DNA of 64,000 bases from contig NC_071334.1 of the NCBI RefSeq assembly GCF_027744825.2, forward strand, positions 37,603,937-37,667,936, read 5' to 3'. Positions 2,551 to 30,620 of the stretch are shown in pieces. A model generated the notes under the pieces. The model did no database searches, was not told the origin of the DNA, and saw nothing but the letters and a program-made list of their open reading frames with translations. The translations under genes and the position numbers were made by a program. This stretch comes from Synchiropus splendidus (lineage: Eukaryota > Chordata > Actinopteri > Syngnathiformes > Callionymidae). Positions within the stretch are counted from its first letter, which is position 1. Every line of letters starts with the position of its first letter.

Positions 2551-2682
2551 CGTTGTATTAATAGAACATTGTGGTCTTCACTTAGAACATAAGTTACATT
2601 TATCAAAACAATGAAACTAACACTCAGCATGTTCAATGAATCTAAAACATCTGCATAAGACATAAGGGGTGTCTCTAATGAA

Positions 2683-2764
2683 GTTAAAACTTTCCACTAA
2701 GGACGACAGCTAGAACACGTGATGAAAATTAAAACTTTCCACTGAAGATGACAAGAACACGTCA
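2683..2764 (+). promoter_or_regulatory. U3 direct repeat, enhancer-like
   Basis: An imperfect ~40-bp direct repeat (starts near 2684 and 2729). Each copy has TTAAAACTTTCCACT followed by GAACACGTGA or GAACACGTCA. These contain an NF-kB-like GGAAAGT on the other strand, an E-box (CACGTG) in copy 1 and a CRE-like ACGTCA in copy 2. Duplicated enhancers are common in retroviral U3; factor identity is inference. Confidence 0.5.
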
Positions 2765-2813
2765 CCCATTAATGACGCATTGGGGGATTGTTTATTGAAA
2801 TCGGCAATGTTGC

Positions 2814-2820
2814 TATAAAG
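2814..2820 (+). promoter_or_regulatory. TATA-like box, candidate 1, in 5' LTR
   Basis: TATAAAG, followed about 25-30 bases later by a CT-rich stretch (2840-2860) that could hold a start site. It competes with the TATA-like box at 3343. Confidence 0.35.
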
Positions 2821-3342
2821 GTCTAGGATAAACTGACCTCTCGCTCTCGCTCTTGATCCACGCTTTTGGCTTCATCCCTTTGCTGTAAGGTCTTGTATCT
2901 TAACTTGGGACGGTGCTCTTGCTCTTGCTCTTAGGCCATTTGATTTAACTCTTTTTGTTGTTCTCTTATGGTTTTTTATTATTGATTGGTTGATTTTTAT
3001 GATTAATTCTTTTGACTTAATCTCTTTTATTGCATATACTTTGAATATATTTTTAGGATCTTTGACTTAATCCTTTTTATTGTGTATGCATTTTGATTAT
3101 ATGATTTTTTGACATTTATGTATGTGCACTAGCGTCTGGCAGTTCCTTTGACTTTGTTGGGTATTAGCGTCTGGCAATACCCTTGAGTTTATTGATGTTT
3201 ATTGATTTTATTGTTTTTATTATCCTTTTTTGAATTTTATTGTTTTATTATCCTTTTATCATTTTTGTATTGAATTTTATTCTTTATTGATTTTACTGTT
3301 TTGTTATCCTTTTTATCAATTTTTTGGAGAAATACTTTTGAT

Positions 3343-3349
3343 ATAAAGA
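3343..3349 (+). promoter_or_regulatory. TATA-like box, candidate 2, in 5' LTR
   Basis: TATAAAG about 30 bp upstream of 3372-3376, which is exactly where homology with the truncated 3' LTR begins. If this is the promoter, R would start near 3375 and the 3' copy would consist of R-U5 only. Confidence 0.45.
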
Positions 3350-3352
3350 CAA

Positions 3353-3358
3353 AATAAA
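3353..3358 (+). promoter_or_regulatory. Polyadenylation signal AATAAA in LTR
   Basis: A single AATAAA in the T-rich part of the LTR. It lies just upstream of the inferred R start, an arrangement known in some retroviruses. The 3' LTR of this copy has lost it. Confidence 0.45.
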
Positions 3359-3453
3359 ACGAAGTACGAATTAAGTACTGAAAAGGCACAACGGCATTGA
3401 TCCCTGACTACTAAAGAATCGACTGGCTCCTGTACTACCATCAACTGGGTTAT

Positions 3454-3461
3454 AGGTGAGT
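3454..3461 (+). promoter_or_regulatory. Candidate major splice donor inside R
   Basis: AG|GTGAGT, a strong match to the vertebrate donor consensus, ~80 bases after the inferred cap site and conserved in the 3' copy at 19146-19153. Foamy viruses place their major donor inside R, unlike most retroviruses, which place it after the primer site. Confidence 0.45.
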
Positions 3462-3689
3462 TAATGCTCGATTGAATTAATGTTTGATTCCCTTTCCTGT
3501 GCACATGTAGTGAATGTCTCGACTGGTAGCATTATTCCATCCTGAATTATTATGTCAATGATAAAGTGGTAGTTCAGAAGGCTGAGGTAATATTTTATTT
3601 AAGGAATGGATTGAGGATCTAATCATGTGTCCCTAAACGAAGCTAAGTAAAGAGACTACGGTAGAAGGTGTAGCATTGTAAGGTCAAGA

Positions 3690-3707
3690 ACCTGTTTCTC
3701 AACAGGT
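3690..3707 (+). other. Hairpin in R-U5
   Basis: ACCTGTT-TCTC-AACAGGT, a perfect 7-bp stem with a 4-base loop, retained in the 3' LTR copy near 19384-19401. It would be present in genomic RNA; role unknown. Confidence 0.4.
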
Positions 3708-3947
3708 CGGGCGAATTAAATAACCCGCTCAGTGAAGCGCCGACACTACTCACTAATATAATAGGTGAAGTTGATAAATCTATTATAGTTTTAGAACCGT
3801 GTCTGCAACAATAGGCTGACTGAGTTGACCACACGAGGGGGCCCTTTACCAGAGAGGCAAAGGGAGGTAGTGTACTCAGAACTAGGGACGGCTTGTTATA
3901 GCCAATTGCCCTGTACACAAAACCTTGAAATCCAAACCCGAGCGACA

Positions 3948-3965
3948 TGGCGCCCGAACAGGGAC
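3948..3965 (+). other. Primer-binding site, tRNA-Lys3
   Basis: TGGCGCCCGAACAGGGAC directly follows the LTR end. All 18 bases complement the 3' end of vertebrate tRNA-Lys3, the primer also used by HIV-1 and MMTV. Foamy viruses are known to use tRNA-Lys1,2, whose site differs after TGGCGCCC, so this is a distinguishing trait. Confidence 0.95.
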
Positions 3966-4397
3966 ATGATTGAAAAACGTACAATCTATTTGTGAGTAAC
4001 TGGACCCCAGATTGAAACTCTGACGGGAAAAGTTCGGTAGTAAATAGATAGATTCTACTATCTCTGAGTTTTGAATCAATGATATAGATTCAGACTCTAT
4101 CACTCGACAAAGTACGATTTAGTTGACTCTGTAATTTACCAAGGGGCTGCCCCTTGGGACTGATCACTCCGAGTAGGGCAGTTAAAGTATTAAGGTAATT
4201 ACAGTGCAACTGCTATAATAGCTGGAATACAGAAGTACAGCAAAAAGTCCCGTGAGGCCTTATAACGGGCACCCCATAAGAAGTCCGCCAGGGACAACTG
4301 GGGAACTGCAGCAGGAAGCAGCGGCATAGTTCGGGAAACTGTTCATAGCCGGTAAAGTGAATTCCTTGAATAATTTCACTGAGACTGCAGAATAAAA
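3966..4397 (+). other. 5' untranslated leader of provirus A
   Basis: About 430 bp between the primer site and the first plausible gag ATG, without a long open frame. It holds a perfect stem-loop at 4139-4157 (CCAAGGGG-CTG-CCCCTTGG, 8-bp stem, 3-base loop). By position this could serve RNA dimerisation or packaging; that is inference. Confidence 0.6.
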
Positions 4398-7300
4398 ATG
4401 AGCAAAGAGGTTGTGCCTGAAAGCAGTGGAGTCTCTAGGAGAAGAGCCTCCATAGCCGAATCTGAGGTTTTGACTGCCCCCCCGATATGTGGGTTGTAGC
4501 ATCTTTTCTGATAATCGATGCACGATTAGAAAATCAGGAATTATGGGATATTTTGCCTTTCGGTTCGTATACGCTCCTTAATCCACAGAGGTGCCCAAGA
4601 CCTACCGATAGTGCGGGTATAGCTTGTTGGGTGAAAGAGAGTTTTCCTGAAGCGGTGAAAGACTTTGACCAGGATCACCCGGGGGACTGGGCCCCAGGTG
4701 AGGCACGTCCCTTGGACACCGGGGACTCGAGATTGCATACAATATTAATGGCCCATTACTTGCCTTTTGACGACAAGGACCCTGAGGGTTCCTTTATGAT
4801 ACTTTCGACAACTTATCACAACTCCTTGACTCATGCCGGAACGTGGGCCGTCATTGTTCCCATTTTTGGGACAGGAGTGTTCAATTTCCCTCTCGGAAGG
4901 GCGATTTAAAGCGGATCCAGTGAAAGTTCAGGACTATGCAGCGTCCAGTAATTATCGAGTTGATGCGACATTAATTGCTGAACTAATGAGGATGCCCGTA
5001 GTGGGCAAGTCATATAAGGAGTTTGTCTTTGACCGTGCCGTAGGGAATATTACTGACAGCTTTGTTCGTCAATACCAGCGCTACCCCGCTAAATCGGGAA
5101 TGTATCCACACGCTGATCTCAAAGAACACCAAACGTTATACGGACCAACTGGTCCATCACCACTGACAAATATGGGGTCATTGGACACTGCATTACAAGA
5201 AATAGCCCATACTCCGACTGCAACTGCGCCACCCGCCTATGAAACTAGCGAGGCTCTCAGGGACCATGGCTATGCCACTCCAGTGAGGGTCCACTTCTCC
5301 CCGCCGTCAGAGGATGACTCTGATGAGGGAGAACCCCTGCACGTGAGTGAAAACAGCAGAGAAATTATTACTAGTCTGGAAAAAATGGCGGGACAACTTA
5401 GTGCGATCTCACAACAAATAGAAAGTCATCGGGATCAGATCAATAGAAGTTTAAGCCAGGGAAGATTAGAATATATTTCAGGTTCCCCGGAAAATCGCCC
5501 ACAGCCCATGCAACCACTTAATCCCTCTAATGACTTGATAGAGGCCTCGGGCCTTAATGCCCCAGGAAACTCTGATGCCAGAGACCCAGGGTTGAGTGAG
5601 TCAACTCCGGATGACATCCCGGTTATTAGAATGGACAATGGATCCATGTTTATTATTTTGCCCACTTCTACGGCTAAATATAAACCCACTGGGGACAATG
5701 TAGTGATCCCCTTAAGAAAGTGGAACGGACTAGATGAGGTGAGGGCATTTTTTTCCGTACAAAAAGAAGATTGGCAGAAAGGACCTCGATTATCAACTTT
5801 CACTTTTGAGTGAAGAAGTTCGTGACCGGAGTTACCGAGCCTTTGAGCGGGTCCATCACCTTGACTTCACTGATTGCGAAGATTCCTCCGTGGCTACTGT
5901 CTGTTTGACACCGTTAGTGCATCCATGCTCAGTAGAAGGTCAAATACACACCGGAGCCAGCAAAATTGCCCGGCCTGAATTGTCTAAGGTGACCCTTGAC
6001 CTCAATCCTCCTGAATCATTGGGGGTTGTCACAAATAACGCAATTAGCACGATGGATGACGGCTACTTATGCGACGCTGGCCTCACTGGGTTATTTTGAA
6101 ACAGTTAAGTGTCTGGTAGGAAACCGACAACTGGCAAAAACACTCTATGACACAGTATTACTTTTAAAACAGGATAACTTTGCAAAGTATCAAGATAATT
6201 CTCCTCAGCTGCAGCGTGGCCTAGAGGAGGAGGAGTGCAGAGAGCCAGAGGAGCCTCGGGTTTCCTTCCGACCCTCCTCTGCGTCTACACCACGCCCCCC
6301 AACTTCTCTACCCAGGTCCCCACGTGACAAACGGCCCTCCTCTGCGTCTGCACCACGCCCCTCAACCCCTCTACCCAGGTCCCCACAGGGCGAACGGCCA
6401 TCAACGCCCCCTGTTAACCGCCAGCCCACCCGAATGGTTCGAGCAAAAGACTCTAGAGGGCGTAAGATAACCTGGGGAGAGTACGACGCCACCAAGTGAC
6501 CGTGCGACCCCGGCAAGGAAGAATTAAGAGAACACCCTATGGCTCATGACTATGATCCGCTGGTACACCAGCAGCCTCCGGAGCCAGGGTGGAATAAAGA
6601 AATAATTACACCCCAGTGGTTTCCTCATGATAGGAAGGAAAGGGCCCGGAGAATGCGATCTCCCTCTGCTGAGGAAATAGGTGAGTGGCAAGGAGTGTCA
6701 AAATCTTTTAAGCGGGCGTATCTTGCACGAGGGTATGATGCACACCGTGATTCATTAACTGATATTTACTCTCATATGCCCAGGGCCACTCGCCAGCCGA
6801 CGGAGCCCTGGGAGGGACAGTCTCAATGTCCCTCTGAACCTGACGATCAGAGTAGCGATGAATCCGGCAGCGATAGTGACTCGCCTCTGGGTCCGCAGCC
6901 AGATCCCCCAACTCCCCCAAGACAGGGTGGCAGGATGGCCCCCGCCGGTAGGATAGGACGGCAGCGCACCTAGCTGGCAGTGTCGATTCTTGCAGGAGGC
7001 CCCCTATTGGAGCCCAGGCAAGACAGTGACGTCAGGGTGTCGAATAAAATTACCCTGGCAGACCTATGCAAAGCACTCCCAAAAAGAAGAGATAAAGAAT
7101 CCAACTGTGAGTATGTCAGGAGATTGAATAAGGAGTTATCTCCTGCTCAAATGACTGACCCGTTTATTAGTAAATATGTCTCCAGAGAGAATGGATTAGA
7201 TTTAGTTAAAGGGCAGACATTAATGGATTTGTTAACCTCCGATGTGGCTACTTTACTCACTAGTCAGGTAGAAGCAACCATACGAGATCTGGTTGATAAA

Positions 7301-7956
7301 GTAAATAGAGGAGAAATGTCTCTTTTAGAGGCTTATTCTATTCTGGCAGAAGAGGGGGACGATGAGTCACAGGTTAAGAGTTTTCTGATTCAGATTAACT
7401 GCCCCGAGCAAGCAAAATTAGTTCTGGAGTTCCTCCAAGCGAAGGGACTCGATGCAAAAACTGAGGTTATCACACGTCAAGAGCTCTTAGAAAGCAAAAA
7501 GAGAAACAGGATGTATCTGAACCTCGACAGCCAAAAAACGAGCAGAGGGGGAAGCCCCTTCCCCCTACCGAATCGAAACCAGCAAACCCACAGCGCGCCC
7601 CGCCTCGCACTCGATCTTCCTTTCCACCCAGAAAGGATCGAAACCAGCAAGACATCAGACCCGAGAGACAGGGTGGGGGCAAGCGCCCTCCATTCAACAA
7701 GAATATGAATGGCTCAGGCATGGATACCCACAGGCAGCCTCGCTGGAGGCAGAATCATGCCGACAATCGACCCCAAACAAAGGGGCAAGATCGCCCCCCT
7801 CCGAAACCAGTGTCCGACGAGGACTGGAAAACGATGACCCAAGAGCAAAAAGAAGCGGTAATACTTGCAGCGGCGCGGCAAAATCAGGATCAGGGAAGGG
7901 AACTGACCGCAGCCCAGAGGAAAGTGTTAGAGAAACACGAACCCAAAACCCAATAA
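4398..7956 (+). pseudogene. gag: gag of provirus A, very large, frameshifted
   Basis: Structural polyprotein, read as one ~1,180-codon gene broken by indels and stops. The likely ATG is 4398; a run of seven C at 4476-4483 shifts frame, and reading continues from 4487, then changes near 4900, near 5750-5790 (beside a T7 run), near 6070-6100 and near 7490. In-frame stops are TGA 6497 and TAG 6971. Visible parts: a PPAY late-domain motif at 5229-5240; an acidic patch and a coiled-coil-like segment (about 5350-5480); an RPSSAS/PRSP repeat; a Ser/Asp-rich stretch (6830-6890); an alpha-helical, capsid-like part (7040-7470); and a basic Pro/Arg/Gly/Gln-rich C-terminus (7500-7956). There is no CCHC zinc knuckle, which recalls foamy Gag. 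At about 1,180 codons it is nearly twice the usual foamy Gag length. The N-terminal assignment rests on position alone. Confidence 0.75.
6269..6394 (+). repeat. 63-bp in-frame tandem repeat in gag
   Basis: Two adjacent 63-bp copies (6269-6331, 6332-6394) plus the start of a third, encoding a 21-residue Pro/Ser/Arg unit beginning RPSSAS and ending SPR or SPQ. The length is a multiple of three, as expected for repeat growth in a translated gene. Confidence 0.85.
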
Positions 7957-7969
7957 TGAGGCCTTATAA

Positions 7970-10281
7970 ATGCAGATATGGGTTAAAGATCAAAAAAGAG
8001 ATTGCTATTATGATACTGGAACAGATATATCCATATTACCGAGAGAATGGTTAGATGAAGAACTCGATCAGAAGATACTCGTAAAATTGGCTAATGGAGA
8101 TGTCGTTATGATGGCCCTAGGTATATTTAATGGAAAAACTGTGGCAATAGGGCCTAACCCTTTATTGTCTCCGAGCATTTAGAGGAAGTGATCCGGAGAC
8201 TGAAGGATCATGGAATGAAGATTGGAATTGCTAAATGTGAGACAGGAGTACCGCAAGTTAAATACCTGGGTGTTTTGGTTACAAAGCACGCGATAACTTC
8301 CACTAACGAATATCTCCAAAATCTGCACCCTACTACGCTTAAAGAGCTAGAAAAATGCTTAGGAAAACTGGGGTGGCTGCGAAATATGATTCCTTATTAC
8401 TCTACTTTAGCGAGACCTGTTGAGATAATTAAAAATAAGGTCAGGTCATTCGACAAGCGGTCCCTAAAATTAATAGAGCACAATAGAATGCTAACGCCAG
8501 AAGAAACAGAAACCTGGAACTGTCTTATTCAACACATTCTTACAGATGGGGTGAAGCTCGCTCTGTATCGAGATGGACAGAATATCTCCGTGGTAGTGTT
8601 GGAGGAAAAGGAAAATGGGGGATGCGCGGCAGTCTACGAGGAAAGTAATGACACACCGATTTGCTACGTATCTGTCAGATATTGACCCACTGAAAGTCGA
8701 TTTGCCCCAGCAGAAAGAGAACTGAGGTTATTATGGAAAGTCTATACTGAACTGGCTTCTAACTTAGGCCAGGTTTATGTAAAATGTACAGTACAGAATG
8801 ACCTCACTAAAGAAATGGTCAAGGACACGGTGGAGTTTGCTAAAGCTTATGCCTCTAGATGGGGAAAGTGGAAGCAAATGCTTCTAGATCCGAATTGGTC
8901 ATTTGTAATGGCTAAGTCTAGGCAGCAGCCTAAAATCACTACGATGTCTCAACCAGACTATACTGGGATATACACCCTTTTTACTGACGGTAGTAAAACA
9001 TCTCAGGATCCCGAGGGATATTGGGGTTTTGTGTTATACAAACGAGACAAACCGATATATAAAGAAAAAGGAAGAATGCGCAAAACAGCACAGGAAGCCG
9101 AGCTACAGGCAGTTGTCAGCGGGCTACAATATGTGAAAAAGAAGGGAATAAAATCCATACGGATTGTGACCGATAGTTGGTATGTGTCGGAACGGCTGAA
9201 AGATAACCTTAAATACTGGCAGCAACGAGACTTCCAGAATTATAAAGGTAAAGAGCTGGAGCACCGTGACTTATGGATAGTGGTGAACCAGCTGCTGCAA
9301 CATATAAAATTGTGGGTGACACATGTCAATAGTCACACGGGACTCCAAGATTTTGATCACATGGGAAATGATGTGGTCGACAGACTAGTGCAGACTAGAG
9401 CAGTTGTAGTGGGCACCTTGATTTTTCCTGATAAATGGAAGAATGATCAAGGGAAAGTTGTCATCCCTCAGGAAGAGAGGCTGGATTATGTCCAGCATAT
9501 ACATCGCGCTTTGCTACATGTTGGTAATGAGAGAACGCGCCGATGGATGGTTGATAACGGGATTGAGGCCGGCCTTCTCAAAGACACAATATCGCTGGTT
9601 AGACATAATTGTGAGATATGCATGGAGAAGGGATTGTTACCTCCTATTGCTTATCAAGAAGGTAAAATTGCTGAAGAATTCCCAGGCATTTCCGCATCTA
9701 TGGACGTAGGTGTCCTGGGGAGTCACTTCAGTCTATATAAAAAATTCCTGGTAATAGCTGACAATGGGGGAGGACACACACGAGTCTACCCCATCAAAAA
9801 AGAAACCACAAAGACAGCAAAAGAGTGTGTGATGTCATTTATTCAGGGGAACCCATTCAAAAGCCTCAGATCTGATAATGCCACCATGTTTACTTCTAAA
9901 CACTTTCGTTCGTGGTTGGAACAGGTGGGGATACGACATGTCTTATCTATCCCGCCCCAATCCAACACTAATGGAGTCGCGGAACGCGCAGTGCGCGCGG
10001 CAAAATCGCAAATACTGTTGTATAAACATAGATGGCACTTACCTGAAAACCTCTTTGCCATTAACCAACAGCTCAGTCTCCCTAAGTTGCGGGGTCATGA
10101 CCCTGCCCGCTCTCACGGGCCCTCTGTATCGTTACAGGTGGGCAGTGAGGTGTGGATACTCGCCACTGGAAGGTCTACTACAATAGTGAAAGTCGAAGGG
10201 AACGTACTTACGGGAAAAGATGGTCACAGGTACCACCCCAAGCAACTTCGACTTAAGTGTAAAAATCAGGATGGAAGCTAA
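7970..10281 (+). pseudogene. pol: pol of provirus A: PR, deleted RT, RNase H, IN
   Basis: Enzymatic polyprotein. The frame opens at TAA-ATG (stop 7967, ATG 7970), so Pol starts at its own codon directly on the protease, with the DTG active site at residues 15-17, as in foamy Pol. Near 8150 the protease sequence runs into the region just after where the RT YXDD box should be; the rest of PR and the RT fingers and palm are deleted. RT thumb and connection follow (8160-8685), then an in-frame TGA at 8683. RNase H keeps its acidic residues (Asp 8986, Glu about 9100, Asp about 9172, Asp about 9379) and a His. Integrase has an H-x4-H and CEIC zinc site (about 9502-9621) and a D, D(35)E core (Asp about 9703, Asp about 9874, Glu about 9982), ending in a short basic C-terminal domain. 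Such a product could not copy RNA. Confidence 0.93.
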
Positions 10282-11816
10282 CCGAGACCATGTGCCAGGA
10301 TGGGTTCAGGGGGTAGGGGAAGACTATGTTAAAATGCACCCCGATCGAGTCTTCCCGAATAATGGCCTCCTTGTTATGGCCTGGGATGGTTCTAATCGTT
10401 CCTGGAAAAAGGGAATTGTTATGCCTTATACTCACCCCACCACCAGTGTTAGGTGGTCTAATTATGAACCTGGTGATTGTGCCCTTTGTGCCAAGCCCAT
10501 TTTTGTCCTCATCTGGTCGGGTGATGCAAGGTACAAGCATGAGCACCGTCCTGAGCAAGCGGAGGTAGGAGCTGAACACCTGGTGGGTGGGATCGAATTA
10601 ATGGGATCTGCCCCTTTCACGTTCTGCATGTGGTGCTGGGAGTCGTGGGGGGGTCGATACCAAATATTACGTAAAGACACCCACTGCAAGCCATGCATCT
10701 GTGGCCGAAGTGAGGGGGACTGGGCCGTGTGTGATACAGGCACCCCCTGGCAGATAAACCCAGCACAATTTTTGGCGCTACGGCATCGTTTTCATTCAAA
10801 CGATCGTCTCATGCAGCCCCCGCTTGCCTTAAGGGCCAGTACTGTTGACTCCTGGAACTGCCCCATCCTGATATATCAGACTATGTGGACTACTAGTGAT
10901 GATAAATTGTCATCGAAGTTCAAAAGGAAACTTTCATTGATCCCCAAGGATACCACCATTAAATGGGAAGACTTCCTCCCGTGGAAGTGGGAGAATGGCT
11001 TACATCTGTCTAGAGACGGAAGCCTATCTTTGCCAGGCTTTAGTTGGAGAAATTGGGAATCCACCTCTTTGGGAAGGTGGTGGACCGAACAATTATGGCC
11101 CCACGATAAGGAGGTTAAGGGGAAAGTGTACCACCCTGATGTGTACAACTACCCCCATTTATCCAACAATAAAAGGATTTTTACAACTTCTGGGACCTTG
11201 CCCAGACATCCTAATGAAGCAAAAGAAGTTAGGGTCTGCACTATAAAGCGTACTCTTATTCTTGTTACTGAATGTGGCCCTCAAACAGTGCCCGGGGCGG
11301 CCCATGTCCTTATTGCATCCACCCGCATCGCATGGTACCCGTTGGGGGTCTGCATAGAGGTGAAGACTGGAGATTTGATGATATTGACCAATGTCTCGAT
11401 CCCGGTTGTGCCCGTAGCAAAAGAAAAATTGACTTGGTGGAGGTCAGCTTGGCTGAGGAAAAGATCTAAGCTGAGTCGTACTGGATTCTCTGAGGCTGTT
11501 CTGGATCTGGAGATGCCAGGCAACACATTTTTCCAGCAGCACCTGAGGCCCCGCCTAGCTGTATATGAGATTGGTCCAGAGGGGGAGAGGAATAATCCCA
11601 AAAACAGCCCGGCTATTATGAACCAATCAGGAGAAAAAGGGAGTCCGAGTTGCAAGAATTAATGCCACCGCCCTCTTCTCACCCACAGGATCTCAATAAT
11701 CCTGGGTCAGAAGAGGAAGAGGCCCCTAAAAAACACGATAAGGGCAAACGGCCAGCTAACGGTAAGCAATCGAGAATAGCCCGCCTTCTTAAAAGAAGGA
11801 AGGGAAAGAAGGAATA
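10271..11816 (+). pseudogene. Accessory gene A (between pol and env)
   Basis: A ~515-codon gene of unknown function. Its ATG overlaps the pol stop (ATGGAAGCTAA, 10271-10281). The main frame runs to 11662, but near 11590-11600 coherent coding moves to another frame that runs to TAA 11816, overlapping the env ATG as TAATG. The protein is Trp-rich with three CxxC pairs (residues 70-73, 119-122, 139-142), suggesting bound metal. The C-terminal frame has a Pro-rich and Glu-rich patch and two basic clusters (RRKR and KRRKGKK) that look like nuclear-localisation signals. Its first ~170 residues share a spaced pattern with gene D (G-[LM]-L, Y-x2-PGD or Y-x-PGD, W-x2-D, then W-x-V and WQ), suggesting paralogy. 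An accessory gene here recalls lentiviruses; a regulatory nuclear role is inference. Confidence 0.7.
11671..11688 (+). promoter_or_regulatory. Candidate splice acceptor for env
   Basis: A pyrimidine-rich run, CCCTCTTCTCACCCACAG, ends in CAG at 11688, about 130 bases before the env ATG at 11817. It is a good acceptor by eye and correctly placed for a subgenomic env mRNA. Confidence 0.45.
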
Positions 11817-14800
11817 ATGAATTTATGGGACAAATTCTGGTATTGGAAAGCTAGGCGCTGGTGGCAATTTAAGGCAAGACAACAATTGGCATATAAAGAT
11901 CAAGCCAAAGACATGCAACACCAGACGCCAGCTACAATTTCCAGGAAACAAATGAAACGAGACAAAATTATCAAGGAATGGGAGAAAACCACAAGGATGT
12001 CTCCCTTGAGTCTTTTTATAATTGGAATGTTATTATTCGTACTAATATTAGTTATAGCCTCATGGTCAAATATAGTCTATGAACACATGACCCATACTAG
12101 CAGTGTCACCCGACGTTGGAAATTAAAAACAGTACACTCTAAAAACTGCACCATTCTGACTCCAGAAACTAGAGAAATACCCCTACCAATTGCAACAGAG
12201 AAAAATGGCACTCAATTTGATCAAGCTTTATGGATGAGACAAGCAGCTGTCTATCTAAATATACACGGAGCTGTAAGTGGCACGTGTCAATATGCTGAGC
12301 AAAAATCTGCTGAACAGGAAATGACAGGTCGGGCTGTCACCGCAAAACCCAGACAGAGACAGTGCCGGAGTGTGAAAAGCTCTGTGAACAAAATCACAGA
12401 AGCAGCTACTATTTTGACAGCTACCATCATGACAATTACCCCCACTATAAATAGTCAGAAACAAAATGCCAATACTACTCAAGACCAAATGACCACTAGC
12501 ACAGCTACTTTTGAATCTGAAAGCACCACCACAGCGATAACAGACGGACCAAATCAGGAAGTCATGACCACGGCCCCTACAAATCCTGTAGCTACACCTA
12601 TTTCCACCCTGATCTCCGACCAAATAGAAACCTATGTTTCCCCGCCTGCTATTATTAAGACAATCCCATTATCAAACCACATTGAAATTAATAATGACAC
12701 TTCAGAATCTGCGAGTCCAGATAAGAAGGACACCGGAGATTGTGATATCCAACATGTCAGAAGATTAATGCTACCCATATATGGGATGCTCCCATTATCA
12801 AAAGAATTGAACCAGACAGCTATGATAATAAAACATGGGAACAAGAACTGTGGGCAACCACGGAAACTTATGGAAATGATGAATGGGATAAAAGTAATCA
12901 AATAGGACAGCTTCTGTTAGATATAGCCCCCCTGCCTTTTTCGGCCAACCCTGACCCCGATGTGTTAAACACTGATCCGACTGACCCTGCTCCTAGAAGA
13001 GTGAGAAGAGGGCAGGAGTACACACTTGAGAGCCTATGCACTAAAGGAATGTTCCATAAGGTAGAGGCAAAAACCACGTCGTTATCATCTAGTGTTATTT
13101 TTGCCGCTATCGTAGCGGCGAATCAAAATAAACACAAAGGAAAGAAGGAACAACAAACTGCGTTCATTCTCTCCGAATACGAAGACAGACAATTTGAGAA
13201 TTGTTTTTATTTGATGGCAAATGGTTCCAGACCATGGTCAGACGGCAAGCCTCCCCCTGACACTCATTTCAGGAGAGAGGAGGTTTACCCCAGATGCAAG
13301 CCAGGAAAAAATTGCAGAAACAGAGGACCTGAAAATGATGGAGATGATGCCGACGCACAAGACACTGGATTACGTAATGTTTATTGGAGATGGCATTTGC
13401 TATCCACCACGACTGAACAAAATAAGAACAAAATTAACGGGACAGGAAAGGCATACATTGCAGATCAGCACTCAGATAGTAAATTTTGGAAAATATGGCT
13501 AAAATACCCTGTCGTGCAGCGAAGGGTCATGTGGTACAAATTAGGGGCGCTGCAAGAAAATGGTATATTATGCCATAACATGCAGTTTAATAATAAAGGA
13601 ATGGAAGAAGGAAATGATTGTCACAAAGAGCCCTGTGAGTGTAGAAGGGATCAGATAGGACTAGCAATTCCCATGATGACTCAACATCCCTCGAGGAATT
13701 GGGTCAATAATAATCAGTCGACCTGGTGGGCTGAGGCTAAGCAATGTTTGTCCAAAGTACTAAGGATAAACATTACTCATGTAAGATATGCATATCAGCT
13801 CATCAATGAAAAACCTAACAATACAGAAAACAGAATATTTTATCCTATGAGGGGAGAAGATTGGGCAAGAGCAATGGAGGACTGTACCAAAGACCTACCG
13901 GTCAATCTATCGTGCCCACTCCCATCTAAAAACTCCATTGGTCGACGACCTAGTGGTCAAGGGCAAGGAGACCATAAGTATACTATTTCTCCGACATGTC
14001 TAAATAATGAGGCTGAAGAAGACCCCACGGTTTTCTTTAAAGCATGGGAGTGGTCTCAGTTAGCCGGCCTTTTGTTAGGAAAAGGATTAGGATGGAACTC
14101 GTTTGACACAGAAAGCTTAGGAATGCTGATATGGCCCCATATTGTGTCATATAAAGAACAAAAAGAAAATACTCTTACTGCTCACCAGAAAGGAAAGAAG
14201 AATACTACGATAATACATCAATTCCTGGTGGGCTCTGGACTCCCACATCTAACAAACCCATTGAACAATCTGAAGGAAAGAGTTAAAAAATATGAGATAG
14301 AAGTACAGACTGATCAAGGGATGTGGGGTTACGACTCAGTGTTCCAAGAAAATATTACTGAATGGAAGAGACCATCTACGGAAGGACTCCGAGATAATGA
14401 CCAAAGGACGTGGTATGCTACACTTAAAGAAGCAACATTATTGTTTAACCCAAGCCAACTGTGGGGAGATATTACACAAATTACAGGAGGTGAAAGAACC
14501 TCGGGAATGGCCCTTCAGGATCAATTAGCTAATTACCAGAACTTTCTCAGAAGGAAAGAAGTCTCCTGGAATGATTCCAATGGAGAAGTGTCTATTCGGG
14601 CCTGGCCCCATTTTAATAACATGATAATTGTCCCGGGAAAAATAGTGTACAAAAGGAGGGAATGGGAGTAGAACCTCCCATAAAGTACACAACGCAGTTT
14701 CTGTTGCCCAATCATCTGAAAACAGTCAGACAATATTTTAAACGATACTCGGAATGGCACCACGTAAGAACAATTCAGTCATCATTCCCGTTTGTTCACA

Positions 14801-15948
14801 CTACTCTAATGACTACGGAGAGGTTTTTAATAGCAGGTCTAGACCTCTTTGAGATCAATAATACGAAGAAGACAAAAAACAAAAGATTTGACAAAACTGA
14901 ATTTAGGAAAACCTGGTTCCCCGTCCTAAGCAACATTCAGTACCCACAGCTCAGATGGCAACCCAATGACCCTGAGTATTTTAATTTAAGTATTACAGGA
15001 TACCAAAAATGCTTTTGTGCACCTAATTTGAAACCTGAGGCGGTATACAGTCATGATTCTAATCTATGCGATCCACACCTCTGGGGTTATATTCCGTGTA
15101 ATACCTCCGGATGTTTTAATGGATCTCGAATAGCTAAACAATTAAAAAGAAAACATGAGTCCTATTTTACCACAAGGTGGGGGACACATGGTATACTGTC
15201 GAAAAATAGGGAAGAAATGTGTGGACGACTAGGAGTCCATGTAGCCGTACCACACTGGCCAAAAGTAGCGGCTCCATTCGGGTTTCTGGAAAGCATAAAC
15301 CCGGGATTCTTAATGTACAATCGCTATGAAACATACCGGGATCAGCTATGTGATAAAGACAATGTGCATGCAAAATCACGGACACAGGTATACTCTATAG
15401 ATGATAGGATTCTTTCAAAAATATCCTATAACGAAACATCCCCGTGGTATATCCCACTAGGAAATAGGAGTTGTGTCTATGAAGATTATAGTGCCCCTAA
15501 GATTGATACAACTCAAGATATATTTGCTTGTGAAAAATTCGACGACTATTGGCATATTGTACGTGATTTCCGCACTAAAACCCCGACAGCAGGATGGTTA
15601 GGATTCATAGGTATGGTAGCAGAAGCGACGGTGTATGGGGTAGGACAAGGAGTTGTAGACACGGTAGACGCCGTGTGGGAAATAATTAAATTAATGTGGT
15701 GGTACATATAATGGATACTTATTGTGTTAGCAGTCCTCATAGGTCTTGCTGCAAACTCTAAAGTAGTCACCTCATGTCGGTGCTTTAACAGTATATGCTG
15801 CTATCCGTGCGGTGCAGCCAGCAGACGAAAAGAAAGACAAGAAAGAGAGTTCTTGAAGAAAGCTCTTCGAGACGTTAAGGAAGACATAAGGAAAAAGAAA
15901 CAAGGAAAATGGAAAAAATCATCGGACGAAGGCTATAGTGAGGTTTAA
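11817..15948 (+). pseudogene. env: env of provirus A, ~1,370 codons, frameshifted
   Basis: Envelope glycoprotein, read in three frames: 11817 to about 12745, about 12746 to 14671, and about 14660 to 15948, with an in-frame TAA at 15709 inside the membrane anchor. The N-terminus is a ~60-residue cytoplasmic segment rich in Trp and Lys/Arg, then a membrane helix (residues about 65-82), as in the foamy Env leader, whose Trp motif contacts Gag. A Thr/Ser-rich mucin-like region follows (about 12410-12640). RRVRR (12995-13009) is a furin-type site, with a short hydrophobic Ala/Val/Ile stretch ~30 residues later that could be a fusion peptide. Many N-glycosylation sequons and cysteines lie between 13200 and 15530. 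The anchor (15690-15760) leads to a Cys-rich, probably palmitoylated, then highly basic tail ending in a YxxV-type motif. It is longer than any Env family I know. Entry function is inferred from the architecture. Confidence 0.85.
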
Positions 15949-15960
15949 CTCAGGGACCTT

Positions 15961-15975
15961 GCTTATGTCTTACAG
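15961..15975 (+). promoter_or_regulatory. Candidate splice acceptor for gene B
   Basis: GCTTATGTCTTACAG ends in CAG at 15975, two bases before the ATG at 15978. This placement suggests gene B is the first ORF of its own spliced mRNA. Confidence 0.45.
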
Positions 15976-15977
15976 AT

Positions 15978-16562
15978 ATGAAGACCAAGGTATCGGCTAC
16001 AAAAGTACCTGAGGGGGAAGCAAATAAGGAAAACCTCAGGATCAAATTTATGACCTTAATATGGGTGTTCGGCACCATCATAATAATATTTGAATCACTT
16101 AATTTTAAAATTACCTACTTCTCCAACAGAGAAGATTGGTGTCAGAGAACAAACATTACTCTTTGTAGATCCATTACCACTCAGAGTTCTTATAGACCTC
16201 TTCTGGAATAGAGAAAGGTTGAAACAACCACTATAATAACAGAAAAATACATCCTAATCAGTGCCAAGGCATTGGTTTATGACATCACTGTAGGATTGAC
16301 TAAATGGCAAAATGACACAATGTTACAAAACGATACACTGAGCTCCATGGCTTATTACCCACGTTACATTAAACACCCAAAAGTGTTTGAACACTGCACG
16401 GATCCAGGAGATAATGTTTGGACTATCTTCTGGATGATGCTGACTTGGGCATACATTGGAGCAGACATACTGACGTTCCATCTACGTCAACAGGAAACTG
16501 AAGGTAACACCTCCATCTACAAGCACACAGGCAAAGCTGCGCAGGAAGTATCTTACATTTAG
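15978..16562 (+). pseudogene. Accessory gene B, two-pass membrane protein
   Basis: A 195-codon frame with one in-frame TAG at 16209; the frame stays open and protein-like on both sides, so I read a single gene with a nonsense mutation. The product would have a charged ~23-residue N-terminus, a membrane helix (about residues 25-43), an ectodomain with NIT, NDT and NDT sequons and a few cysteines, a second very hydrophobic helix containing VWTIFWMMLTWAYIG (near 16417-16470), and a short hydrophilic tail. Both termini would face the cytoplasm. It lies 29 bp after env and 11 bp before gene C. I recognise no family. An alternative is that the first 77 codons are the real protein. Confidence 0.6.
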
Positions 16563-16573
16563 TCGCACTGAGC

Positions 16574-17236
16574 ATGGCAAGCAACCAGACGAACAACACC
16601 GGGTATGACCCAGCAAATCCTCCTCAGGTAGGGACAGATTTTATTGATCTTATGATACTGTCCATGTTACAAGTAGTATTTGTTCCTCCATTACACAAGC
16701 AAAAAACTTGCCTAGGATGCATCTTCGGATTAGTAGTAGGATGCATTCATTTTTTAGTTAGAAAAGTAACCCCTTTACTCACATCATTCGGCCTCATTGG
16801 AGTCGCTGCATTGAATCTTAGTCCTCAGAGACCGTGGCTTTGGCCGACCGCGGTCACCGTAGTATACGTTCTGGACAGTTTGTACACCGAATTGACTTTA
16901 CTATTTTGCATAGGTTCTCAGTGCACCTATTGCAATATAGCAGGGACAGTGATATATCTTATACTCATAGGTTTATTGCTGACATTAATTTGGTCAACCC
17001 TGGGGAGGTATAAAAAGGCAGCACTAAATCTTACAGGGCAATGGATGATTCTGATGATATGGGTCCTGATTAAAAAATTAGCTGGAGGAACTTCCTTGTA
17101 TGTCTCTATGTTTTATATAGGTTATCTGATGGGGACTTGTTATCCCATGAAACTATGGAAAACTCACCAAACGACAACAAACGACATTAGGTTGTTTGGA
17201 ATGGCGTCTGCTGTTAGTAGACCTTCTCAAAATTGA
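16574..17236 (+). CDS. Accessory gene C, polytopic membrane protein
   Basis: An intact 220-codon frame with an ATG start 11 bp after gene B. The N-terminus carries two sequons (NQT, NNT) before the first hydrophobic segment, implying an outside or luminal N-terminus. Hydrophobic segments lie at about residues 23-39, 46-62, 66-82, 90-113, 121-142, 157-167 and 174-188, so five to seven membrane passes. Cysteines cluster at 46-57 and 112-120. A hydrophilic tail of ~30 residues follows. Multi-pass proteins are essentially unknown among standard retroviral genes, so this may be a captured host gene or a viroporin- or receptor-like protein. I recognise no family; at 220 residues it is short for a seven-helix receptor. 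It is one of the few genes in this provirus with no break. Confidence 0.7.
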   Translation: MASNQTNNTGYDPANPPQVGTDFIDLMILSMLQVVFVPPLHKQKTCLGCIFGLVVGCIHFLVRKVTPLLTSFGLIGVAALNLSPQRPWLWPTAVTVVYVLDSLYTELTLLFCIGSQCTYCNIAGTVIYLILIGLLLTLIWSTLGRYKKAALNLTGQWMILMIWVLIKKLAGGTSLYVSMFYIGYLMGTCYPMKLWKTHQTTTNDIRLFGMASAVSRPSQN

Positions 17237-17240
17237 CATT

Positions 17241-17257
17241 TTGTAATGTTTCTACAG
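17241..17257 (+). promoter_or_regulatory. Candidate splice acceptor for gene D
   Basis: TTGTAATGTTTCTACAG ends in CAG at 17257, inside the first codons of the gene D frame. If used, gene D would be joined to an upstream exon rather than starting at the ATG at 17246. Confidence 0.35.
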
Positions 17258-17710
17258 GGCCCAATTGTGATTACGGACGGGAACGACAAGGCGGATCAAT
17301 GGGATCCATGGGGCACAAAGGAGACGAATGTGCTGTTAGCTCTGGATGTGATCATGGAGCCCCTTGAACCTAAAACCAAAGTCCGCCCTGCAGACATAGG
17401 ACGCCGTAGGGTTTTTAGTTGGGGACCCTCCACCAAAATGATTGAATATTGGAGGAATAAGCCCCTCATGAGATTTACAGCAAAAGTATCACGCGGCGTC
17501 GTCACCCAAGAACACCGAAAGAAGGTCCAAAAGATATGGGTGCCCCTTGAAATCAAACCGACGAGAAAGATCGTGTGGTCATTTGAAAAAGAGACCCCGT
17601 TCATCCTCCAGGCATGGCCACGTTTCGTGGTAATGTGCCAGGAGGATGAGCCATTAGTACACTGGCTTCCAGTGGTATGTGCCGAAAACTGGGAGTTCAC
17701 GTTCCCATGA
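17246..17710 (+). CDS. Accessory gene D, first part (or gene D1)
   Basis: An open frame of 154 codons starting ATG at 17246, 10 bp after gene C. It is rich in Trp, Lys and Arg, with no signal peptide or membrane segment, so a soluble intracellular protein. Its middle (FSW near residue 53 to WLPVVC near residue 143) resembles by pattern the second half of gene A (FSW to WYPLGVC). Coherent coding continues in another frame from about 17700, and that frame lacks an ATG near its beginning, so D1 and D2 are probably one ~600-codon gene with a frameshift around 17660-17708. I recognise no known family; position just before the 3' LTR is where foamy viruses keep their transactivator and Bet genes. 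Confidence 0.6.
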   Translation: MFLQGPIVITDGNDKADQWDPWGTKETNVLLALDVIMEPLEPKTKVRPADIGRRRVFSWGPSTKMIEYWRNKPLMRFTAKVSRGVVTQEHRKKVQKIWVPLEIKPTRKIVWSFEKETPFILQAWPRFVVMCQEDEPLVHWLPVVCAENWEFTFP

Positions 17711-19073
17711 TAAGCTGCCCCCATTGACCACGTACGCCCTTAGGGTGTACCACTGTACTATAGGACCTGGGCAGACATCCTGGATTGAACAGGGAGGATT
17801 TCATCCTCCATATGTGGTGCAGGGAATGTTGTTGAAAACGGAACAGATGGGAGAAGTGTATGATAAAGATTTGGGGTTCATTAGTCCCGCTAGACCTTGG
17901 GGGCCGGGAAACATACAGCCAGGTTACCGACGTCCAGGGGACCAGATTCACCTCCGTGACCCAAACTTACTGATGGTGACTCAGTGGCAAAGAGACGCTG
18001 TGAGCGTGTATGAGGACTGGGAGGACTTGATACTCAGTGAACATGGTAGATTATGGCATGGGGGGTATAGTCTACACCATTATCAAGGAGGATTTTGCCC
18101 CCGTGGTTACTTCGAGTGGATGAGCAAATTATTGAAAAATAGAACAACAGTGCCCACCGCATCGGGGTGGCATGTTCAAGGACCAGTCTCATGGCAGAAT
18201 TTTGCCCAACTGGTAATAAGCGGAAATGAGAAAGAAGCTCTGGCTGTGTTGAAGGGAGAACGTGACTGGAAGCGCCCTGCTATGCTCGAGCAGCACAAGC
18301 AGAGATTTAGGCGCGGTGGGAGGCCCTTTCCTCGGAGAACAAATCCGGCGAGACGCTGGGTAGAGAGAGCTGCGACGTCCAGAAGCGGTTGGGTATTTCA
18401 GTTTGCTTCGGCTCCTGGGCAGGGGAACAACTGTCTGCCTGATAAAGGACCATCTGCTAACTCGGATTCGGGAGCTACTCCCGCCCCAAGGGCACCCAGA
18501 CGTCCAAGGGCCTCCGTGTCCGTACCAACGTACGTACACCTGCATTCCTCTCCCCGATCACAGCAGAGTGAGATCTCGCTAACTGAAGGTGAGACGGATG
18601 AAGAAAATCCGAAAGATCAATCAAAATCTCCCGAAGACACCGGTGCAACAAATTGCGACTATTGTAAAGGTAAAGTAATGACTCACAAAAATCTACTCCT
18701 ATGTAAACATGAGGGCCATGTCCTGAAAAATTGTCATCAATGGGGGTTATATATGATAAAAAACAAATTTGTCTTCCCAGACTCAAAACAGCTCACAGAT
18801 GTCCCAGCTAATGTTACCTCCACAGGGTCGGCTGACCCTGTCAACACATCTTCAAGGTCGGCTGATCCTGTGAACACATCATCTCCGGTGCGTCCGAATA
18901 CCCCCAGAGTTTCGACCCCTGTTACGCCTGAGCGGAACGAATACTCTCCTACCACCCCCCGAGATGAGAGTCCAGATCCCACCATGCCTAATCGTCCGAG
19001 CAGAGGAAGCGACCTCACTCCTCCATCAACGCACGACGCCGCGACATCTACCGGTAGAGGCAAGGAGTACTGA
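17679..19073 (+). CDS. Accessory gene D, second part (or gene D2)
   Basis: An open frame of 464 codons, entered at GTG 17679 with no early ATG, ending TGA 19071-19073 at the very edge of the truncated 3' LTR. The first ~200 residues match gene A by pattern (GMLL, YRRPGD, W-x2-D, W-x-V, WQ and AQ in the same order). An Arg-rich stretch (18290-18370), a Ser/Pro/acidic region (18540-18640), and a compact CDYC...CKHEGH...NCH cluster (about 18650-18740) that could be a zinc finger follow. The C-terminus is Pro/Ser/Thr-rich with a short direct repeat of SADPVNTSS (18830-18890). Basic, acidic and metal-binding parts together suggest a nuclear regulator like foamy Tas, which is inference. The last codons may come from the deletion joint. 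Confidence 0.65.
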   Translation: MPKTGSSRSHDKLPPLTTYALRVYHCTIGPGQTSWIEQGGFHPPYVVQGMLLKTEQMGEVYDKDLGFISPARPWGPGNIQPGYRRPGDQIHLRDPNLLMVTQWQRDAVSVYEDWEDLILSEHGRLWHGGYSLHHYQGGFCPRGYFEWMSKLLKNRTTVPTASGWHVQGPVSWQNFAQLVISGNEKEALAVLKGERDWKRPAMLEQHKQRFRRGGRPFPRRTNPARRWVERAATSRSGWVFQFASAPGQGNNCLPDKGPSANSDSGATPAPRAPRRPRASVSVPTYVHLHSSPRSQQSEISLTEGETDEENPKDQSKSPEDTGATNCDYCKGKVMTHKNLLLCKHEGHVLKNCHQWGLYMIKNKFVFPDSKQLTDVPANVTSTGSADPVNTSSRSADPVNTSSPVRPNTPRVSTPVTPERNEYSPTTPRDESPDPTMPNRPSRGSDLTPPSTHDAATSTGRGKEY

Positions 19074-19639
19074 AAAGGCACAACGGCATTGATCCCTGAC
19101 TACTAAAGAATCGACTGGCTCCTGTACTACCATCAACTGGGTTATAGGTGAGTTAATGCTCGATTGAATTAATGTTTGATTCCCTTTCCTGTGCACATGT
19201 AGTGAATGTCTCGACTGGTAGCATTATTCCATCCTGAATTATTATGTCAATGATAAAGTGGTAGTTCAGAAGGCTGAGGTAATATTTTATTTAAGGAATG
19301 GATTGAGGATCTAATCATGTGACCCTAAACGAAGTTAAGTAAAGAGACTACGGTAGAAGGTGTAGCATTGTAAGGTCAAGAACCTGTTTCTCAACAGGTC
19401 GGGCGAATTAAATAACCCGCTCAGTGAAGCGCCGACACTACTCACTAATATAATAGGTGAAGTTGATACATCTATTATAGTTTTAGAACCGTGTCTGCAA
19501 CAATAGGCTGACTGAGTTGACCACACGAGGGGGCCCTTTACCAGAGAGGCAAAGGGAGGTGGTGTACTCGGAATTAGGGACGGCTTGTTACAGCCAATTG
19601 CCCAGCACACAAAACCTTGAAATCCAAACCCGAGCGATA
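19066..19639 (+). repeat. 3' LTR of provirus A, U3 missing
   Basis: It matches 3372-3947 (R-U5) with about ten substitutions. The ~820 bp of U3, the polypurine tract, TATA and AATAAA are absent; gene D runs straight into it through the shared bases AGTACTGAAAAGG, so a deletion at short homology is likely. The terminal CA of the 5' copy reads TA here. Satellite resumes at 19640 with GAGATAAGG. Confidence 0.88.
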
Positions 19640-24661: not shown

Positions 24662-24665
24662 CCTG
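24662..24665. repeat. Target-site duplication of provirus B, left
   Basis: CCTG precedes the left LTR and recurs at 31468-31471 after the right LTR. Joining the flanks recreates the satellite's TTCCCTGCAAAGTTATGG, so the insertion is clean. Confidence 0.9.
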
Positions 24666-30617: not shown

Positions 30618-30620
30618 AAT

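What the first reader, a model, noticed from the sequence alone, without database searches (positions are those of the whole stretch)
2554..19639. A ~17-kb complex retrovirus with an unusual gene set
Directly seen: LTR, primer site, gag, pol, an accessory gene before env, a ~1,370-codon env, and three or four accessory genes after env. Known retroviruses are mostly 7-13 kb. Pol with its own ATG, a Gag without a zinc knuckle, an Env leader with a membrane helix, a long LTR and a donor in R all recall foamy viruses, but Lys3 priming, the extra genes and the size do not. It may represent a poorly described lineage.
Basis: partly seen in the sequence, partly recalled or inferred. Interest (0 to 1): 0.88.

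Follow-up and report, generated by a model that had tools for sequence, protein, structure and literature searches.

The report
Giant fish retrovirus with Gag macrodomain
The window holds a broken copy of a very large, recently active fish relative of foamy viruses, whose less damaged sister copies are about 20 kb long, carry an ADP-ribose-type 'macro' domain at the start of their Gag protein, and lie nearly always next to one satellite-DNA family in the copies sampled.

Summary
The provirus is real, but as a damaged copy. It lacks the RT core (about 0.7 kb), about 0.12 kb of gag, the first ~185 bp of the 5' LTR and U3+R of the 3' LTR; gag, pol, env and two accessory genes are broken. Size class, extra genes and tRNA-Lys priming are not new: ray-finned-fish foamy-like ERVs ('Gigantospumavirus' proposal, 17.4-17.5 kb) were published in 2017 (PMC5512871). 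PR-RT of a sister copy matches foamy-virus PR-RT-RNase H at 160 bits in the PDB, against 111 for Ty3, 69 for the murine leukaemia type and 63 for HIV-1.

The host genome is held and gave RNase H-integrase matches at 81 scored places in at least two subfamilies. New here: (1) sister-copy Gag has an N-terminal macro domain (Pfam E 5e-9, above cut-off, in subfamily B; 0.00096, below it, in subfamily A), also present in a distant relative; the catalytic Asn of loop 1 is replaced. (2) Proviruses are 19.6-20.1 kb in the 13 copies measured. (3) 24 of 25 sampled sister copies, and the window copy, touch one 188-bp satellite, against 0 of 20 spot controls, mostly with 5-bp duplications. (4) A six-helix membrane protein gene and a ~660-codon gene follow env, with dN/dS below 0.4. 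Verdict: new variant of a known kind.

The parts
1..2550 (.). 188-bp satellite array, left flank
   Evidence: repeat copies at 188-bp spacing; alignment to the satellite consensus stops near 2550
2554..3948 (+). 5' LTR, its first ~185 bp missing; TATAAA at 2814, only AATAAA at 3353, so R is roughly 2840-3373 and U5 3374-3948 (limits of R and U5 inferred)
   Evidence: truncation shown by 5 of 5 subfamily-A sister copies
3949..3966 (+). primer binding site, tRNA-Lys3 type
   Evidence: read directly; same site seen in two sister 5' LTR pieces, the other three pieces not showing it
4399..7956 (+). gag, broken in several frames, about 120-130 bp missing near 4900
4487..4906 (+). Gag N-terminal open frame with the remaining part of a macro domain
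   Evidence: Pfam Macro E 0.017-0.019 here, below cut-off; 5e-9, 5.6e-9 and 6.9e-8 in three subfamily-B copies, 0.00096 in one subfamily-A copy
6269..6402 (+). tandem repeat in gag, two 71-bp matches at a 63-bp offset
7970..8182 (+). start of pol: candidate ATG and protease motif DTGTD, cut by the RT deletion
8158..8685 (+). C-terminal part of RT and connection
   Evidence: Pfam RVT_1 E 4.4e-4, profile end only, below cut-off
8686..10281 (+). RNase H and integrase
   Evidence: Pfam RNase_H 1.2e-22, rve 5.1e-9
10220..11817 (+). accessory gene between pol and env (position of published acc3), broken near its end
   Evidence: 480-codon ORF; 546 and 544 codons open in L085 and L086, interrupted in L087, L008 and L005; dN/dS 0.21-0.22
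11817..15948 (+). env in pieces: leader with membrane helix, RVRR site, C-terminal membrane helix
   Evidence: one 1,481-codon frame in a sister copy
15963..16562 (+). possible small membrane-protein gene, one stop inside; weak support
   Evidence: only short open stretches at the same place in one sister copy
16574..17236 (+). six-helix membrane protein gene, 220 codons, open here
   Evidence: six hydrophobic segments at a lenient threshold of 1.2, three regions at 1.6; open in 3 of 4 sister pieces; dN/dS 0.23-0.25
17246..19073 (+). last accessory gene, two frames here, its 3' end lost
   Evidence: 666-codon frame in 2 of 2 sister copies; dN/dS 0.28 and 0.39 for the two pieces
19066..19639 (+). 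remainder of the 3' LTR: U5 only
   Evidence: 98.4% to 3374-3945; no AATAAA; more LTR in 4 of 5 sister pieces
19640..24665 (.). 188-bp satellite array, right flank

Best explanation
It is a defective endogenous copy of a young, multi-copy, about 20-kb foamy-like retrovirus of what is most likely a ray-finned fish. Shown: gag, pol in another frame, an accessory gene, a very long env, a six-helix membrane protein gene and a last accessory gene, between LTRs of about 1.6 kb with a tRNA-Lys3-type primer site; a macro domain at the N-terminus of Gag in sister copies; sampled proviruses nearly all next to one 188-bp satellite, mostly with 5-bp target duplications at different satellite positions. 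Inferred: pol starts at its own ATG and, like the downstream genes, is made from spliced mRNA as in foamy viruses; the Gag macro domain, having lost the catalytic Asn of loop 1, binds ADP-ribose or an ADP-ribosylated partner rather than hydrolysing it, bringing Gag, and perhaps the incoming complex, to an ADP-ribosylated or heterochromatic site or shielding it from host PARPs; preferred integration into satellite chromatin, perhaps through Gag tethering, spares host genes and let the family build up. The window copy was later damaged by at least four deletions and several frame breaks.
For: Foamy affinity: PR-RT, 160 bits, E 6e-46; next 111, 69, 63 bits; the two best hits of the RNase H-integrase frame are foamy chains, over its RNase H part; foamy integrase is the best integrase with a 3-sequence profile and with P0001; Spuma_A9PTase E 0.007-0.008, below cut-off. 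Published counterpart. Macro domain: searches (5e-9, 5.6e-9, 0.00096; 6.9e-8), distant relative P0002 (9.3e-7); 0 of 5 shuffled controls hit. Selection on the genes tested: dN/dS 0.06 (RNase H-integrase), 0.21-0.22, 0.23-0.25, 0.28, 0.32 (Gag N), 0.39 (env not tested). Length 19.6-20.1 kb in the 13 of 20 subfamily-B copies with both ends found. Satellite: 18 of 20 5' pieces and 19 of 20 3' pieces of subfamily B, 5 of 5 5' pieces and 4 of 5 3' pieces of subfamily A, 0 of 20 control regions. Target duplications: exact 5 bp in 9 of 13 subfamily-B copies by script, 4 bp in 1; 5 bp in 4 of 4 subfamily-A pairs read by eye. Candidate pol ATG at the gag stop in 6 of 6 sister copies checked. Youth: five LTR pairs with 0 to 5 mismatches of 1,651-1,738.
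Against: No phylogenetic tree was built, as no retroviral reference set is held. With the window's integrase alone the best PDB hits were avian sarcoma virus over ~60 residues and another integrase, ahead of the foamy integrase; with the 3-sequence profile bacterial RNase HI outscores the foamy RNase H, 52.4 against 48.2 bits. No Pfam family reached its curated cut-off in the Env or accessory ORFs, so gene homology with AciFLERV/AliFLERV is by position only. Target duplications are 5 bp, where foamy viruses make 4 (recalled). Pol sits in the -1 frame of gag in sister copies and that frame is open well into gag in two of them, so ribosomal frameshifting is not excluded. Macro function is untested; both structure models were poor (pLDDT 42 and 43). 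Satellite abundance could reflect retention rather than targeting, and the 20 control sites, picked by hand at round coordinates, miss the stretches where copies cluster.
Confidence: 0.87

Rival explanations
1. An ordinary member of the published ray-finned-fish FLERVs with nothing new: the Gag macro domain and the satellite placement are general FLERV features that nobody annotated.
For: Architecture and size class match AciFLERV/AliFLERV; P0002, only 33% identical in RNase H-integrase, also has the macro domain, so the domain is old in the lineage.
Against: The main text of PMC5512871 mentions neither macro domain nor satellite; even if general, the domain would be unreported as far as the listings show.
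Confidence: 0.4
2. The macro domain was captured from a host gene by a recent ancestor and is a passenger without a role.
For: Fish ERVs of another (epsilon-like) group are said to carry macro-domain ORFs (PMC4977317, passage); the catalytic Asn is lost.
Against: Present in both subfamilies and in P0002; dN/dS 0.32 across Gag N; loop 2 kept (GTGVFNYP or GTGVFNFP) in the three Gag copies printed.
Confidence: 0.12
3. Satellite placement is not targeting: insertions elsewhere were purged, or satellite-array expansion multiplied a few insertions.
For: 4 of 18 subfamily-B junctions share satellite position 24; satellite is gene-poor (inference).
Against: 14 different positions among 18, in both satellite orientations and on many contigs, mostly with 5-bp duplications; LTR pairs differ by 0-0.3% in five copies, leaving little time for purging.
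Confidence: 0.35
4. The element belongs to another basal lineage (for example lokiretroviruses) and only resembles foamy viruses.
For: Integrase alone is equivocal; Gag and Env have no foamy Pfam match.
Against: PR-RT score gap of 91 bits over the next true retrovirus; no zinc knuckle, Env leader helix, candidate pol ATG at the gag stop.
Confidence: 0.06

Closest known systems
Ray-finned-fish foamy-like ERVs AciFLERV and AliFLERV (proposed 'Gigantospumavirus', PMC5512871)
   Same: Giant size class, tRNA-Lys primer site, accessory gene of similar length between pol and env (465 against about 545 codons), accessory genes after env, foamy-like Pol, multi-copy and young
   Different: About 20 kb against 17.4-17.5 kb; macro domain in Gag (not mentioned in its main text); no separate acc4, env being one 1,481-codon frame in the copy seen (AliFLERV too is listed without acc4); last gene 666 codons against 234 for acc2; satellite placement. 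Sequence homology of the accessory genes could not be tested
Mammalian foamy viruses (Spumaretrovirinae)
   Same: Pol sequence, Gag without CCHC knuckle, Env leader with membrane helix, long LTR, probably pol from its own ATG
   Different: Twice the size, extra genes, Gag macro domain, 5-bp against 4-bp target duplication (the latter recalled), no foamy Gag, Env or Bel Pfam match
Epsilon-like fish ERVs with macro-domain ORFs (Basta et al. 2009, known only through one passage of PMC4977317)
   Same: A macro domain in a fish endogenous retrovirus
   Different: Another retroviral class and an additional ORF as described there; here the domain is the N-terminus of Gag of a foamy-like virus
Viral macrodomains (corona-, alpha- and hepatitis E-type viruses; passages of PMC7729036 and PMC10221186)
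   Same: Macro family by profile, loop 2 motif kept
   Different: Loop 1 Asn replaced, so hydrolase activity is not expected; placed in a structural protein of a retrovirus

Membership tests
Retroviridae (endogenous provirus) | LTR pair, primer site, gag-pol-env order, RT-RNase H-integrase | tested here: met
   complete RVT_1 only in sister copies, as the window copy lost it
Foamy-like viruses (Spumaretrovirinae sensu lato) | Pol closest to foamy viruses | tested here: met
   by score of one sister PR-RT piece against the PDB chains; not a tree
Foamy-like viruses (Spumaretrovirinae sensu lato) | Monophyly with foamy viruses in an RT or Pol tree | not testable with these tools
   no retroviral reference sequences are held
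Foamy-like viruses (Spumaretrovirinae sensu lato) | Gag without CCHC zinc knuckle | tested here: met
   0 matches in all plus-strand frames of the window gag stretch and five sister pieces
Foamy-like viruses (Spumaretrovirinae sensu lato) | Pol expressed from its own ATG and a spliced mRNA, not as Gag-Pol | tested here: inconclusive
   an ATG sits at the gag stop, 57 nt before the protease DTG, in 6 of 6 sister copies checked; pol is in the -1 frame, frameshifting is not excluded, splicing untested
Foamy-like viruses (Spumaretrovirinae sensu lato) | Gag, Env and accessory proteins match foamy Pfam families | tested here: not met
   no such hit; PMC5512871 reports no strong similarity outside Pol for ray-finned-fish FLERVs
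Foamy-like viruses (Spumaretrovirinae sensu lato) | 4-bp target-site duplication (recalled) | tested here: not met
   5 bp exact in 9 of 13 subfamily-B copies by script and in 4 of 4 subfamily-A pairs; 4 bp in 1
Ray-finned-fish FLERV ('Gigantospumavirus' proposal) | Genome far above 10 kb with accessory genes before and after env | tested here: met
Ray-finned-fish FLERV ('Gigantospumavirus' proposal) | Sequence homology with AciFLERV/AliFLERV genes | not testable with these tools
   their sequences and supplements are not held
Ray-finned-fish FLERV ('Gigantospumavirus' proposal) | Ray-finned-fish host | tested here: inconclusive
Macro domain (PF01661) | Profile match above the curated cut-off | tested here: met
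   36.6, 36.4 and 32.9 bits against 22 in three subfamily-B Gag pieces; 19.5 bits in the subfamily-A copy and 15.3-15.5 in the window copy are below it
Macro domain (PF01661) | Catalytic Asn of loop 1 (NAAN) | tested here: not met
   NPRR in the three sister Gags printed, NPQR in the window; NPAN in P0002
Lokiretroviruses | Placement by Pol tree | not tested
   no reference sequences

The most novel reading that the evidence does not exclude
A lineage of ~20-kb foamy-like fish retroviruses, active until very recently, carries an ADP-ribose-reading macro domain inside its Gag and uses Gag-chromatin contact to integrate into satellite heterochromatin: the first retroviral capsid precursor with a macro domain, the largest proviruses known, and a satellite-targeting vertebrate retrovirus.
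Probability: 0.4. Interest if true: 0.88.

Novelty: new variant of a known kind. Interest (0 to 1): 0.74.

Why it matters
Viral macro domains are known as antagonists of PARP-based immunity in plus-strand RNA viruses; one in the Gag of a retrovirus, with its hydrolase Asn lost but the domain under purifying selection, makes it directly testable whether a retroviral structural protein reads host ADP-ribosylation. The proviruses exceed the 17.4-17.5 kb that PMC5512871 called the largest known retroviral genomes. With 24 of 25 sampled sister copies next to one 188-bp satellite, the family also offers a natural test of integration-site targeting to satellite chromatin in a vertebrate.

Tried and rejected
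Tried without result. Viral contigs and genome contigs: no relatives. Protein database: 2 relatives for RNase H-integrase, 1 partial for the pre-env gene, none for the six-helix gene. Structure models of the Gag piece and of RNase H-integrase (pLDDT 42 and 43) were too poor for a fold search, so none was run. A residue-level comparison of the window Gag piece with P0002 was not significant (272 of 2,000 shuffles scored as high), and NCBIfam gave no hit for the window piece; the macro claim therefore rests on the sister copies. Self-comparison of the ORFs for duplicated accessory genes: nothing below E 0.2.

Rejected. 'The 820 bp 2554-3373 are a foreign insert': sister copies have matching sequence at both ends. 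'Separate acc4 before env': in the sister copy fetched the stretch is the env leader. 'The open 1,356-codon frame over Gag of one copy is intact': it holds a LINE inserted in the macro domain. 'Extra genes were added at this locus': they are in sister copies.

Limits. One search scored 81 of 596 candidates; its 98 match rows include 17 that are second halves of a place, so places are 81 and a lower bound. For flanks I took 20 subfamily-B rows, ten per strand and mostly from the top of the list, and 5 of 6 subfamily-A loci (one was identical to another over RNase H-integrase and left out). In 6 of the 20 B copies the 3' piece held satellite but no LTR end, and in one the 5' piece gave no LTR start, leaving 13 measured. 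The three B copies without a scripted duplication include one where the script took a wrong LTR start (one search shows 5 matching bases on both sides) and one with 4 of 5 matching. LTR pairs were aligned with 0 to 164 gap columns, not counted as differences.
Full report
What is in the window. The window is a 188-bp satellite array with a provirus of about 17.1 kb in it. The LTR part shared by both ends is 3374-3945 and 19066-19637, 98.4% identical. The 5' side has 820 bp more, with a TATAAA at 2814 and the only AATAAA of the LTR at 3353, so the shared part is taken as U5 and the 3' copy has lost U3 and R. A tRNA-Lys3-type primer site follows at 3949. The plus strand of 3949-19065 has 16 open stretches of at least 140 codons against a shuffle mean of 0.28 and maximum of 2.

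The copy is broken. The genome in which the window lies is held (583 Mb, 96 contigs) and gave 98 match rows at 81 scored places for the window's RNase H-integrase piece (a lower bound). Six fetched loci are 95-98% identical in protein to the window piece (subfamily A); most other full-length rows are 91-94% (subfamily B, about 90% in DNA for L008), a few less. Against seven sister loci of the pol region the window lacks about 0.7 kb of RT in 7 of 7; against three of the gag region it lacks about 0.12-0.13 kb in 3 of 3. In 5 of 5 subfamily-A copies the LTR starts 181-222 bp upstream of the point matching 2554. gag, the pre-env gene, env and the last gene are each in more than one frame here. 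There is no target duplication, and the satellite phase breaks by about 60 bp. No base is mended here.

Gene set in sister copies. pol: 26 of the 98 rows report a 1,157-codon open frame, one of them with a stop inside the match. In 6 of 6 copies checked a pol ATG sits at the gag stop, 57 nt before the protease DTG, in the -1 frame of gag. Pre-env gene: 546 and 544 codons open in two copies, interrupted in three others. env: one 1,481-codon frame with a leader helix, an RVRR site and a C-terminal helix in the one copy fetched. Six-helix gene: 238-codon frame, 216 from its ATG, in 3 of 4 copies. Last gene: 666 codons in 2 of 2. gag spans about 1,200 codons in one copy, interrupted by stops. dN/dS between subfamilies is 0.06 for RNase H-integrase, 0.21-0.22 for the pre-env gene, 0.23-0.25 for the six-helix gene, 0.28 and 0.39 for the two parts of the last gene and 0.32 for the N-terminal part of Gag; env was not tested. 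The extra genes are therefore viral, predate the split of the subfamilies and were selected.

What it is. PR-RT of a sister copy matches the PR-RT-RNase H chains 7kse, 7ksf, 7o0h, 7o24 and 7o0g at 157-160 bits (foamy viruses: recalled, the entry names being Peptidase A9, Protease/RT/RNase H and Pr125Pol), then chains at 111 and 108 (the second named Ty3; the first Ty3 by recall), an 'Enzymatic polyprotein' at 90, murine-leukaemia-type RT at 69 (name recalled) and HIV-1 at 63. The foamy aspartic protease profile is hit at E 0.007-0.008, below cut-off. With the integrase alone the window sequence favours avian sarcoma virus over about 60 residues (31.6 bits) before the foamy integrase over 183 residues (28.8 bits), while relative P0001 and a three-sequence profile favour the foamy integrase; in that profile bacterial RNase HI outscores the foamy RNase H (52.4 against 48.2 bits). 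PMC5512871 (abstract; sections 5, 6, 7, 10 and 23 read) describes ray-finned-fish foamy-like ERVs of 17.4-17.5 kb with a tRNA-Lys primer site, acc3 and acc4 before env and acc1 and acc2 after it, calls them the largest retroviruses documented and proposes 'Gigantospumavirus'. The window family fits this kind by Pol, size class and gene order. Homology of its accessory genes with theirs could not be tested.

Macro domain in Gag. The distant relative P0002 (33% in RNase H-integrase) has a Pfam Macro domain (9.3e-7; NCBIfam ADP-ribosyl-hydrolase model 1.8e-4; PDB AF1521 0.0023) upstream of RNase H. The window's Gag N-terminal frame hits the same Pfam family at 0.017-0.019, below cut-off; five shuffles gave none, but unrelated families scored equally low E-values with other ORFs (0.007), so this alone would prove little. 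In sister copies the domain is complete: 5e-9 and 5.6e-9 at residues 74-176 of 570- and 519-codon open pieces, 6.9e-8 in a third subfamily-B copy, and 0.00096 in a subfamily-A copy. Loop 1 reads NPRR where active macrodomains have NAAN, and loop 2 reads GTGVFNYP or GTGVFNFP. PMC7729036 (passages) states that replacing the last Asn of NAAN by Ala abolishes activity; PMC10221186 (passages) names Asn/Ser and Gly at loop 1 and a hydrophobic-aromatic pair at loop 2. A binder without hydrolase activity is the inference. The listings showed no report of a macro domain in a retroviral Gag; apart from the passages read in PMC4977317, PMC7729036 and PMC10221186 the listed papers were not opened. The one precedent is a sentence in PMC4977317 on epsilon-like fish ERVs with macro-domain ORFs, citing Basta et al. 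2009 (that paper was not seen). The main texts of PMC5512871, PMC6001957 and PMC8672886 do not use the term. The open library misses most subscription papers; Ruboyianes and Worobey 2016 is not held.

Size and place. In the 13 of 20 subfamily-B copies in which both LTR ends were found, the provirus is 19,587-20,089 bp, including 4 bp of flank counted by the script. The 188-bp satellite touches the 5' piece in 18 of 20 and the 3' piece in 19 of 20, and lies upstream in 5 of 5 and downstream in 4 of 5 subfamily-A copies; 20 control regions of 2 kb, hand-spread over six contigs, held none. One copy has no satellite on either side. Exact 5-bp duplications are found in 9 of 13 B copies by script and in 4 of 4 A pairs by eye. 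The 18 readable B junctions fall on 14 different satellite positions in both orientations, 12 of 18 in positions 16-45 and 5 in 113-140 of the 188-bp unit; the clustering was noticed after the fact and 4 share position 24. Five LTR pairs differ by 0-5 of 1,651-1,738 sites, which at the 1.46e-8 rate quoted in PMC5512871 is of the order of 0.1 million years or less; the window's U5 pair (1.6%) would be about 0.5 million years.

Host. A Synchiropus picturatus protein (P0003) begins with 84 residues that match the end of the pre-env gene at 83% in four subfamily-A loci, and carries an RVT_1 and a PF09004 domain, as a LINE does; a dragonet or another fish with the same virus family is likely, and the identity is too low to claim that species.

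Mechanism. Shown: anatomy, selection, satellite placement of the sampled copies, recent activity. Inferred: spliced expression of pol and the 3' genes, ADP-ribose reading by Gag, tethering to satellite chromatin. The six-helix protein could be a membrane channel or a trafficking antagonist; nothing tested distinguishes these.

Noticed in passing
window 24640-31549: A second insert in the satellite, about 6.9 kb with similar ORFs near both ends and a CCHC motif on the minus strand; looks like a Ty3/gypsy-type element by eye, no domain search run.
   Followed up: no
window 61804-64000: Strongly skewed, minisatellite-like sequence with repeated short motifs at the end of the window.
   Followed up: no
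L095: In one sister copy a LINE (RVT_1 plus PF09004) is inserted inside the Gag macro domain, giving a misleadingly long open frame; the Synchiropus protein P0003 shows the same Pfam pair fused to the pre-env gene.
   Followed up: partly
P0002: A 718-residue protein from another source joins a Gag-like start with a macro domain directly to RNase H and integrase, as if gag-pol had an internal deletion.
   Followed up: partly
G000 rows: Four pol copies lie in much longer open frames (1,759 twice, 2,176 and 2,225 codons), as if gag and pol were in one frame; not examined.
   Followed up: no
5' junctions of 18 subfamily-B copies: Insertion points cluster at positions 16-45 and 113-140 of the 188-bp satellite unit, which may reflect nucleosome phasing; post hoc.
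   Followed up: partly
window 3353-3374 and 19066: The part of the LTR kept at the 3' end begins about 15 bp after the AATAAA, near the expected poly(A) site; could be chance.
   Followed up: no
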